Assembly (NCBI GenBank): GCA_002490315.1
Contig: DLKG01000019.1
Coordinates: 1-10,307 of the forward strand
Source of the DNA: Prevotella sp. UBA7594
Lineage (GTDB): Bacteria > Bacteroidota > Bacteroidia > Bacteroidales > Bacteroidaceae
DNA length: 10,307 nucleotides
Reading direction: 5' to 3'
Part shown: in pieces, positions 5,631 to 7,518 of the stretch
Position numbering within the stretch: position 1 is the first letter of the stretch
Layout: each line of letters begins with the position of its first letter
Translations under genes and position numbers: made by a program
Notes under the pieces: generated by a model
Database searches by the model: none
Told to the model about the DNA's origin: nothing
What the model saw: the letters and a program-made list of their open reading frames with translations, nothing else

Positions 5631-5692
5631 AAAGGGACGTGGGGCGTCGCTTAGCGAATGACTCTTAAGTGACGTACCCCACCTCCTTTTTT
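5631..5692 (+). terminator. Strong terminator or attenuator hairpin between fusA and rpsJ
   Basis: GTGGGG (5639-5644) pairs with CCCCAC (5677-5682). Inside that, CGTCGCTTAG (5645-5654) pairs with TTAAGTGACG (5665-5674) with two G-U pairs. Outside, AAAGG (5631-5635) pairs with CCTTT (5685-5689). A six-T run ends at 5692. This has the form of an intrinsic terminator for the str transcript. No clear Bacteroidota promoter follows before rpsJ. The best candidate, TAGAATTG at 5749-5756, has one mismatch and no -33 partner. The hairpin may therefore be an attenuator that S10-operon transcription passes through. Confidence 0.75.
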
Positions 5693-5779: not shown

Positions 5780-6085
5780 ATGAGTCAGAAAATTCGTATC
5801 AAGCTGAAGAGCTACGACCACAAGCTCGTAGACAAGTCAGCAGAGAAGATCGTAAAGGCAGTAAAGGCAACCGGCGCCATCGTTAGTGGCCCAATTCCAT
5901 TGCCTACCCACAAGCGCATCTACACTGTAAACCGCAGTACCTTCGTCAACAAGAAATCTCGTGAGCAGTTCCAGCTCTCCGACTTCAAGCGTCTCATCGA
6001 CATCTACAGCTCAACAGCTAAGACTGTTGACGCGCTCATGAAGCTCGAGTTGCCAAGCGGTGTGGAAGTAGAGATCAAAGTATAA
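5780..6085 (+). CDS. rpsJ: 30S ribosomal protein uS10 (NusE)
   Basis: uS10 is a 30S head protein. As NusE it also binds NusB and NusG in transcription antitermination. The 101-residue sequence has the family signature GPIPLPT (37-43), the extended loop near 44-62 that threads into the 30S head and ends in SREQFQ (60-65), and RLIDI (71-75). The length is typical. It opens the S10 cluster after a 275-base structured gap. It ends with two in-frame stops, TAA then TGA. The next gene is not rplC, as in nearly all bacteria, but an unrelated membrane-protein gene 18 bases on. No Shine-Dalgarno sequence precedes the ATG. Confidence 0.98.
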
Positions 6086-6103
6086 TGATAGTATAGTTAT
6101 GCA

Positions 6104-6292
6104 ATGAATATTGAGGGTTTCTTGAATCCATTTGTTTGGATATTCTTTTGGTTAGTGCTTCTCCCTATTTCTATTTATAGATTATGGAGAGAGTTACGAA
6201 AGTCAAAAGAATGGGATATAAGTGGTATCATTGAGTCTTCTTTTATATTGCTTGTTTCTATAATCTATGTAGTGATTAAAATACTGAAATGA
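6104..6292 (+). CDS. Small membrane protein with two predicted helices, unknown
   Basis: I do not recognise this 62-residue protein. It has two hydrophobic stretches, about residues 8-25 and 41-60, joined by a basic segment RLWRELRKSK (26-35). By the positive-inside rule the linker would be cytoplasmic and both ends periplasmic, making an inner-membrane hairpin. The gene starts 18 bases after rpsJ. Its stop overlaps the start of the next gene in ATGA (6289-6292), which suggests translational coupling and a shared function. Codon use is AT-rich (ATA, AGA and TTA), unlike the surrounding ribosomal genes. A small partner or immunity-like protein for the lipoprotein is possible but unproven. The downstream overlap and the clear membrane pattern argue that it is a real gene. 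Confidence 0.75.
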   Translation: MNIEGFLNPFVWIFFWLVLLPISIYRLWRELRKSKEWDISGIIESSFILLVSIIYVVIKILK

Positions 6293-6876
6293 AATACAAA
6301 TTATTTACATTCTTGATTGTATCTTCTTTAGCATTATTGGCATGCTCGCATGAGATGAATAATGCAGAAGTCGATAACACTGAGCATGCAGAAAAATTCA
6401 ACTCTTGTCTGGGTGAGTTTAAATCAAATTTTTCAAGTGAAACTGAGAAATTGATAAATTTGAAAACTCGTTCAATGGAAATTGACGATAATGGGGAATA
6501 TGATTTGTTTGTTGATTCCATAGGAAATGAAATTATTGCAGACTTATTACCTTCCTCTATTCGGTTAGAACACGAAATAGGTTTGAAGGAAGAGGATTTT
6601 AAAGAAATCGAAAAAGAATATGGATTTCCTTCTGATTTTATGAAGGTATATTTTGCTTTGGGAATTATGGAGGAGATGAATATTTCAAGTACGAGGGCTA
6701 GCGTTGAGGATGTAACGAGTTGTGTAATTACAGGTTATGGCTACAAAGAATTCGTAGGAGGTGGAGCAAAATTAGCATTGCGTAAGTTTGCTACAAAAGC
6801 TGCAAAAAAAATTGTCCCTTATATAGGTTGGGGATGGTGGGTTACGGAAAGTGTGGCTTGTTTAGCAAGATTATAA
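6289..6876 (+). CDS. Predicted lipoprotein with acidic body and cationic tail, unknown
   Basis: A 195-residue protein of unknown function. Residues 1-18 form a signal peptide (basic KYK, then a hydrophobic core) ending in the lipobox L16-L17-A18-C19, so lipidation at Cys19 and export are predicted. Residues 20-144 are acidic, with about 29 Asp/Glu against 11 Lys/Arg. The C-terminus is different: GGG at 157-159, a Lys/Arg-rich helix-like stretch (161-174), then IVPYIGWGWWV (175-185) and a short end. Residues 160-195 carry seven Lys/Arg and one acidic residue. Cysteines at 40, 145 and 191 remain after processing, and C145 and C191 flank the tail. The start is fixed by the ATGA overlap with the upstream membrane-protein gene. 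The stop is 27 bases before rplC. Composition is AT-rich. It may be a surface lipoprotein or a membrane-active effector; neither is proven. Confidence 0.85.
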   Translation: MKYKLFTFLIVSSLALLACSHEMNNAEVDNTEHAEKFNSCLGEFKSNFSSETEKLINLKTRSMEIDDNGEYDLFVDSIGNEIIADLLPSSIRLEHEIGLKEEDFKEIEKEYGFPSDFMKVYFALGIMEEMNISSTRASVEDVTSCVITGYGYKEFVGGGAKLALRKFATKAAKKIVPYIGWGWWVTESVACLARL

Positions 6877-6903
6877 CTTTTTTAATTAAATATGTAAATT
6901 GAA

Positions 6904-7518
6904 ATGCCAGGATTAATTGGAAGAAAAATCGGAATGACATCCGTTTTCAGTGCCGACGGTAAGAACGTACCGTGCACTGTTATCGAAGCTGGTCCATGTG
7001 TTGTAACACAGGTCAAGACCGTTGAAACAGACGGTTACAAGGCAGTTCAGCTGGGCTATGGTGAAGCTAAGGAAAAGAACACTACAAAGCCTATGATGGG
7101 CACCTTCAAGAAGGCAGGTACAACACCGAAGAAGCACTTGGCCGAGTTCAAGTTCGACGAGGAGTACAACCTCGGTGACGTTATCACCGTAGAGCTCTTC
7201 AACGACACAGATTACGTTGACATTGTAGGCACCTCTAAGGGTAAAGGTTTCCAGGGTGTCGTTAAGCGTCATGGATTCGGTGGTGTAGGCCAGAGCACAC
7301 ACGGTCAGGACGACCGCGCTCGCAAGCCGGGTTCTATCGGTGCTTGTTCTTACCCAGCAAAAGTGTTCAAGGGAATGCGCATGGGCGGCCAGATGGGCGG
7401 CGACCGCGTAACAACCCAGAATCTCAAAGTGTTAAAGGTAATTCCGGAGCACAACCTCCTTCTCGTTAAGGGTTCTGTAGCCGGATGCAATGGTTCAACC
7501 GTATTAATCAAGAAATAA
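6904..7518 (+). CDS. rplC: 50S ribosomal protein uL3
   Basis: uL3 is an early 50S assembly protein that binds 23S rRNA, with a loop reaching towards the peptidyl-transferase centre. The 204 residues show the N-terminal [13 protein letters not shown] (3-15), the [16 protein letters not shown] core, and the extended loop [18 protein letters not shown] followed by [18 protein letters not shown]. The position aligned with E. coli Gln150, methylated by PrmB, is serine here (SIGACSYP). The start codon has an AT-rich leader without a Shine-Dalgarno sequence and follows the inserted gene pair by 27 bases. Its stop overlaps the rplD start by one base. The length is normal. Confidence 0.98.

What the first reader, a model, noticed from the sequence alone, without database searches (positions are those of the whole stretch)
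6086..6903. Two non-ribosomal genes inserted between rpsJ and rplC in the S10 operon
The rpsJ-rplC junction is conserved across nearly all bacteria. Here a pair of co-oriented, AT-rich genes (about 35% G+C over most of the second) splits it without breaking the operon. No promoter or terminator is visible at the edges, so the pair would be expressed with ribosomal proteins, at high and growth-linked levels. Composition and codon use point to recent acquisition.
Basis: partly seen in the sequence, partly recalled or inferred. Interest (0 to 1): 0.85.

Follow-up and report, generated by a model that had tools for sequence, protein, structure and literature searches.

The report
Bacteriocin-immunity pair inside ribosomal operon
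Between two ribosomal protein genes of a Prevotella relative sit two small genes that look like an antibacterial peptide and its self-protection protein, so the weapon might be made whenever ribosomes are made; this is inferred from sequence comparison and untested at the bench.

Summary
In detail: ORF1 (62 aa, two membrane helices, 6104-6292) and ORF2 (195 aa lipoprotein, 6289-6876) lie between rpsJ and rplC at 30-35% G+C. I read them as a protease-activated lipoprotein bacteriocin (ORF2) with its immunity protein (ORF1). ORF2 ends in a 59-residue cationic module with cysteines 46 apart, behind an acidic prodomain and a Thr-Arg site (R in 21, K in 2 of 23 family sequences, near-duplicates included). 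Relatives in two other genomes keep the layout, lipoprotein plus 63-65 aa two-helix protein; one lies in an apparent class II bacteriocin cluster. Three broken ORF2 allele types leave the small gene intact or nearly so, like an orphan immunity gene. No Pfam model matches ORF2 and the other library hits are weak. The three nearest genomes have empty 20-28 bp junctions. One other contig has ORF1 and an ORF2 remnant at the same junction, synonymously less diverged than its flanks, suggesting horizontal spread. Universal conservation of the junction is overstated: 25 of 125 scored loci (not a random sample) show no rpsJ near rplC. Killing, cleavage, immunity and cotranscription are untested.

The parts
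5780..6085 (+). rpsJ (ribosomal protein S10), left flank
   Evidence: ORF and match to relatives at this place
6086..6103 (+). 18-base spacer between rpsJ stop and ORF1 start; no promoter or terminator seen
6104..6292 (+). ORF1, 62 aa, two hydrophobic helices with a basic loop; proposed immunity protein
   Evidence: 14 homologues; two helices in AF2 model, mean pLDDT 75.5; hydropathy; kept where ORF2 is deleted
6289..6876 (+). ORF2, 195 aa, lipoprotein; proposed bacteriocin precursor
   Evidence: 12 homologues, alignment, no convincing curated family
6289..6345 (+). signal peptide and lipobox of ORF2 with Cys19 (LLAC), recognised by eye
   Evidence: C19 at 90% or more of rows; lipobox-like Cys in 21 of 23 sequences
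6466..6471 (+). Thr60-Arg61, upstream candidate cleavage site
   Evidence: TR in 18 and TK in 3 of 23 sequences at a comparable place
6691..6696 (+). Thr135-Arg136, candidate cleavage site that frees the C-terminal module
   Evidence: invariant in 13 rows; R in 21 and K in 2 of 23 sequences
6697..6873 (+). C-terminal module, 59 aa, net charge +4, Cys145 and Cys191, GWG motif; proposed active peptide
   Evidence: invariant C145, P177, G180, G182, C191 in the 17 rows of A2
6877..6903 (+). 27-base spacer to rplC, no + strand promoter or terminator seen
6904..7518 (+). rplC (ribosomal protein L3), right flank
   Evidence: ORF and relatives

Best explanation
ORF2 is the precursor of a small antibacterial peptide. 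Its lipoprotein signal takes it to the envelope, probably the cell surface. An arginine-specific protease of the clostripain (C11, fragipain-like) kind cuts after Thr-Arg sites and frees, from an acidic prodomain, a 59-residue cationic peptide closed by a Cys145-Cys191 disulfide, which damages the membrane of related bacteria. ORF1, coupled to ORF2 by an ATGA overlap, is a two-helix inner-membrane protein that protects the producer. The pair lies in the rpsJ-rplC junction, so it would be made with ribosomal proteins. Shown here: the genes and their conservation, the TR sites, the charge split and cysteines, the recurring lipoprotein plus two-helix layout, the bacteriocin-like surroundings of one relative, broken ORF2 alleles beside a kept small gene, and the patchy presence. 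Inferred: export to the surface, cleavage by a C11 protease, disulfide, killing, immunity, membrane as target, cotranscription.
For: (1) Layout: in three divergent loci the lipoprotein gene adjoins a gene for a 62-65 aa protein with two hydrophobic stretches and a basic loop (window; L173 from G150; L174 from G873). Local control: six frames of 104,799 bases hold 5 such ORFs of 55-80 aa, 4 of them beside the lipoprotein gene, two of these four being copies of one cassette. (2) The lipoproteins are related by pairwise hhalign, 98.6% and 99.2% probability. (3) Context: in L174 a peptide with a weak Bacteriocin_IIc match (E 7.3e-5, 23.1 bits, below the 27.1-bit cut-off) lies 2.5 kb, and a C39-peptidase ABC transporter 4.3 kb, downstream of the lipoprotein gene. 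(4) Anatomy: in 23 sequences the module is +2 to +7; the prodomain is -3 to -18 in the 21 that have a lipobox; Cys span 46 in 19; TR directly before the module in 20, AR, TK and LK in one each. (5) ORF2 broken, small gene kept: L084; P0025/P0026, judged from protein alone, where ORF1's last residues change too; G136, where likeness to the G150 cassette starts near codon 60 and the small gene is whole. (6) ORF1 window against L084: fewer nonsynonymous than synonymous changes per site, Fisher p about 0.02. (7) C11 peptidase matches in 5 of 6 genomes tried. (8) Precedents: BcpT and Fab1.
Against: No activity is shown. The AlphaFold model of ORF2 is poor (mean pLDDT 60.9; 133-157 and 174-195 under 50) and no PDB fold matches at E 0.001. 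ORF1 has no detectable sequence likeness to the small protein of L083/L173 (E 1.5), and gene order differs (ORF1 is upstream here, downstream in L173 and L174). The G873 relative has Leu-Lys and its genome no C11 match. ORF2 shows no likeness to the Gly-Gly peptide beside the G873 relative. The G589 case lies on a contig of a bin with two rplC copies, so its owner is uncertain. The window's own genome could not be searched for a protease.
Confidence: 0.72

Rival explanations
1. ORF1 is a small membrane toxin and ORF2 its lipoprotein partner or antidote, an addiction-type pair that stabilises the insert.
For: ORF1 is short and strongly hydrophobic; the genes overlap.
Against: ORF2 is broken while ORF1 is kept in L084 and, judged from protein, in P0025/P0026, which should be harmful if ORF1 were the toxin. 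One relative lies among bacteriocin-like genes.
Confidence: 0.08
2. ORF2 is an ordinary surface lipoprotein (adhesion, signalling or envelope stress) whose C-terminal domain is never released, and ORF1 helps its export or stability.
For: Lipobox and helical prediction; ORF1 is more conserved than ORF2 in P0003/P0024.
Against: The acidic-then-basic charge split with a conserved TR site at the border, the bacteriocin-like surroundings of one relative and loss of ORF2 alone fit less well.
Confidence: 0.15
3. The pair is passive cargo, tolerated because it does not disturb the operon.
For: Deleted and truncated copies exist; composition is foreign.
Against: ORF2 is whole in the window and in 11 of 12 homologues, the twelfth (P0007) lacking only the first 22 residues; ORF1 shows fewer nonsynonymous than synonymous changes.
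Confidence: 0.05

Closest known systems
BcpT/BcpI of Phocaeicola vulgatus and P. dorei (PMC9308784, passages read)
   Same: Lipoprotein precursor; two Leu-Thr-Arg sites (R65, R199) that C11 proteases cut; small immunity protein (57 aa) encoded next to it; acts between Bacteroidales.
   Different: BcpT is 499 aa, on a plasmid, with residues 200-499 as likely active part; BcpI is a lipoprotein encoded downstream. ORF2 is 195 aa with a 59-aa module; ORF1 is a two-helix protein encoded upstream, in a ribosomal operon. I had no BcpT sequence to compare.
Fab1/RFab1 of Bacteroides fragilis (PMC8406203; abstract, passages and section 10 read)
   Same: Protoxin activated by fragipain at Arg-Ala; adjacent immunity gene; patchy distribution; immunity gene found without the toxin in two strains.
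   Different: A 50-kDa protein that releases a 28-kDa fragment; immunity gene downstream. I had no Fab1 sequence to compare.
Class II double-glycine-leader bacteriocins (Pfam PF10439 Bacteriocin_IIc)
   Same: Small peptide; a relative of ORF2 lies near a peptide that weakly matches this family.
   Different: ORF2 has a lipoprotein signal and a long acidic prodomain, not a short Gly-Gly leader; hhalign finds no likeness to the Gly-Gly peptide of L174.

Membership tests
Fragipain-activated lipoprotein toxins (BcpT, Fab1 kind) | Signal peptidase II lipoprotein precursor | tested here: met
   Lipobox-like LLAC by sequence, C19 nearly invariant; lipidation itself not tested
Fragipain-activated lipoprotein toxins (BcpT, Fab1 kind) | Activating cleavage after Arg by a C11 protease | tested here: inconclusive
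   TR sites conserved and C11 matches in 5 of 6 genomes; cleavage cannot be tested here
Fragipain-activated lipoprotein toxins (BcpT, Fab1 kind) | Sequence homology to BcpT or Fab1 | not tested
   Their sequences were not in hand; sizes differ widely (papers)
Fragipain-activated lipoprotein toxins (BcpT, Fab1 kind) | Adjacent immunity gene | tested here: inconclusive
   Small two-helix gene adjacent in three divergent loci; protection untested
Class II double-glycine bacteriocins (PF10439) | Short leader ending in Gly-Gly | tested here: not met
   Lipoprotein signal instead; no Pfam match for ORF2 up to E 10
Class II double-glycine bacteriocins (PF10439) | Dedicated C39 exporter nearby | tested here: not met
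   Window neighbours are ribosomal genes, fusA, gltD-like and DUF3467 by reading; an exporter is near only in relative L174
Small membrane toxin-antitoxin pair with ORF1 as toxin | Partner is not lost while the toxin remains | tested here: not met
   ORF2 broken, ORF1 kept

The most novel reading that the evidence does not exclude
The rpsJ-rplC junction serves Prevotella as a docking site where a bacteriocin-immunity cassette is borne on the ribosomal protein transcript, so that weapon output and self-protection follow growth rate, with parts swapped between strains by recombination (the linker and the module of ORF2 have different nearest relatives).
Probability: 0.3. Interest if true: 0.78.

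Novelty: new variant of a known kind. Interest (0 to 1): 0.62.

Why it matters
If right, this is a small, unnamed family of protease-activated lipoprotein bacteriocins in Prevotella and related Bacteroidota, with an assignable immunity gene and a directly testable active peptide. Its place inside the S10 operon would tie antagonism to growth rate without a dedicated regulator, and shows that a textbook gene junction can carry cargo.

Tried and rejected
A recombination tract reaching into rplC: the first 120 bp of rplC are 116 of 120 identical between window and L084, which looked like an imported tract, but the same stretch averages 0.94 (up to 0.98) in 57 other loci of 78-90% overall identity, so it is general constraint and was dropped. 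It also inflates the rplC figure in the codon comparison.

Phage or plasmid origin: ORF2 gave no tblastn match in phages or plasmids, and the ORF2 alignment none in viral contigs or genome contigs (pattern-based scans). Two distant relatives, P0014 and P0018, also gave no plasmid match.

Fold and family searches: the ORF2 model is weak and no PDB match reaches E 0.001; the profile search of PDB sequences gave 0.091 at best. Weak library matches that I set aside: ORF1 to BatA N-terminal E 0.008, CbiM E 0.048 and DUF3262 E 0.26 (Pfam) and CbiM E 0.033 (NCBIfam); ORF2 to a cytochrome c551 model E 0.1, phrog_11062 E 0.092 and ZorB E 0.0022 over residues 6-71 (PADLOC). The G150 and G873 lipoproteins touch a BSAP5b pore-forming toxin model only at their N-terminal 59-68 residues (E 0.004 and 0.008).

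Order-level search: 25 of 295 genomes matched at E 0.01, but only G150 and G873 reach beyond position 125 of 179, so the other 23 were dropped. An ORF1 match in G574 (E 7.8e-4) has no fitting small membrane gene in the listing and was dropped, as was a short N-terminal match in G008 (E 0.098).

Rfam: no match at gathering threshold in the window or seven loci with long junctions.

Script mended: the prodomain start or module start was mis-picked for several rows; one search repeats the count with the right starts and replaces it.

Papers: seven searches showed, in the 8-15 rows listed each, no title or abstract start on this family or on a bacteriocin in the S10 operon. The term 'lipoprotein' does not occur in the main text of PMC13289728 (rumen bacteriocins; passages seen). 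The library lacks most subscription papers.

Full report
What is there. The window carries a gltD-like gene, a DUF3467 gene, rpsL, rpsG, fusA, rpsJ, the two-gene insert, then rplC, rplD, rplW, rplB, rpsS and rplV (names other than DUF3467 are my reading of the translations). ORF1 starts 18 bases after the rpsJ stop; ORF2 overlaps ORF1 by ATGA and ends 27 bases before rplC. The insert is 30-35% G+C with third-position G+C of 0.28-0.31, far from its neighbours. No terminator and no better-than-chance promoter was found at its edges. The window's own genome is not held.

Distribution. ORF2 has 12 homologues down to 47% identity among 232 candidates and ORF1 14 among 14 candidates; the lists include the window's own ORF1 and a 99% copy of ORF2. 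The ORF2 alignment matched 1 of 398 genus-level genomes (G589, a remnant) and 2 of 399 family-level genomes, both distant copies elsewhere. The insert DNA found no carrier among 248 relatives: 78 had matches, which in the listing are short flank matches or two short chance-like ones. ORF1 matched 2 of 235, G589 and one that I dropped. These sets overlap. In the three closest genomes the junction is empty: 28, 27 and 20 bp. Of 128 loci with distinct rplC starts, 70 have a gap of at most 60 bp, 15 of 61-150, 15 of 151-1000 (L084 among them), 25 show no rpsJ in the at least 1.3 kb held upstream of rplC, and 3 could not be scored. These loci were fetched for likeness to the window, so they are not a random sample. 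Several of the longer gaps contain, by eye, a terminator-like hairpin and a TAnnTTTG-type promoter, and in Xylanibacter ruminicola (L024) an unrelated 834-aa ORF precedes rplC. In this group the junction is often broken.

Same junction elsewhere. G589 contig C36 (L084, L176) has rpsJ, a 62-aa ORF1, a remnant of ORF2 and rplC. The remnant keeps the signal peptide and, out of frame, the last codons; about 450 bp are missing relative to the window. Between window and L084, codons for the same amino acid are identical in about 33 of 41 cases in ORF1, against about 50 of 93 in rpsJ, 112 of 178 in rplC, 73 of 117 in rpsL and 302 of 617 in fusA; Fisher p 0.004, 0.043, 0.036 and 0.00008, not corrected for four tests, counts rounded from printed fractions. 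Allowing for codon bias keeps the order (0.64 for ORF1 against 0.07-0.34 for five other genes). The cassette is thus younger than its flanks in this one comparison, as expected if it moved between lineages. G589 has a second rplC on another contig, so C36 may belong to another organism in the bin.

What ORF2 is. It has a lipobox at Cys19. An alignment with the G150 copy and seven more distant proteins found from it (17 rows) leaves seven invariant positions, five of them in the C-terminal module: C145, P177, G180, G182 and C191. In 23 sequences (window, 20 proteins from the two searches, the G150 and G873 copies; P0001, P0007 and P0013 are near-duplicates of others) the residue before the module is R in 21 and K in 2, with TR in 20, AR, TK and LK in one each. 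The module has charge +2 to +7. The prodomain has -3 to -18 in the 21 with a lipobox; P0007 starts late and P0020 has no evident lipobox. The cysteines are 46 apart in 19 of 23 (42, 47, 49 and 50 in the others). A second TR (18) or TK (3) lies some 58-75 residues upstream. The AlphaFold model is all-helical but weak.

Why bacteriocin and immunity. A relative in G873 (L174) lies in a locus with a peptide that weakly matches Bacteriocin_IIc (below cut-off), a second Gly-Gly-type short ORF without a Pfam match, a thioredoxin-like gene and a C39-peptidase ABC transporter. In G873 and G150 the lipoprotein gene is followed after 11-12 bases by a gene for a 65- or 63-aa protein with two hydrophobic stretches and a basic loop, the layout of ORF1. 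Such ORFs are rare in the regions looked at: 5 in 104,799 bases read in six frames, 4 of them beside the lipoprotein gene, two of these being copies of one cassette (the ORF1 copy in L176 was not caught by these criteria). ORF1 shows no sequence likeness to the G150 small protein; fast-evolving immunity proteins could look like that. Broken lipoprotein with kept small gene is seen in L084, in P0025/P0026 (protein only; ORF1 running into what reads as an out-of-frame ORF2 end) and in G136, where likeness to the G150 cassette starts near codon 60. PMC8406203 reports rfab1 without fab1 in two strains. PMC9308784 reports that full BcpT activity needs cleavage at two Leu-Thr-Arg sites, which C11 proteases cut. 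C11 peptidase matches exist in G717, G771, G632, G589 and G150 but not in G873, whose site is Leu-Lys-Ala.

Against the reading. Nothing shows activity. ORF1 hardly changes (95% identical) where the module changes by a quarter (P0003 and P0024 share a longest-contig length), so protection would have to be broad. ORF2 itself looks mosaic: its linker is 90% identical to P0003 but 65% to P0002, its TR-plus-module part 74% and 95%.

Verdict.

Noticed in passing
window 6904-7023: The first 120 bp of rplC are unusually conserved at DNA level (mean 0.94 in 57 loci of 78-90% overall identity, against about 0.82 for the rest of the gene), which hints at an RNA or translation signal inside the start of rplC.
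   Followed up: partly
L003, L011, L012, L022, L098, L104, L105, L111 upstream of rplC: Long rpsJ-rplC gaps carry, by eye, a terminator-like hairpin in several, a TAnnTTTG-type promoter and a recurring 'TTGCGCTG' leader before rplC; seven of these loci, all but L098, had no Rfam match.
   Followed up: partly
window 5639-5682: The fusA-rpsJ spacer holds an imperfect inverted repeat (GTGGGGCGTCGCTTAG against CTTAAGTGACGTACCCCAC), seen by eye.
   Followed up: no
L174 10138-11637: Two short ORFs with MKKLSLEQMEEVEGG-type Gly-Gly leaders, probable class II bacteriocins, near the lipoprotein relative.
   Followed up: partly
L174 7971-8363 and 9557-10093: Two similar ORFs with a helix-turn-helix-like start and a KISGG motif flank the lipoprotein pair in G873, like a duplicated cassette.
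   Followed up: no
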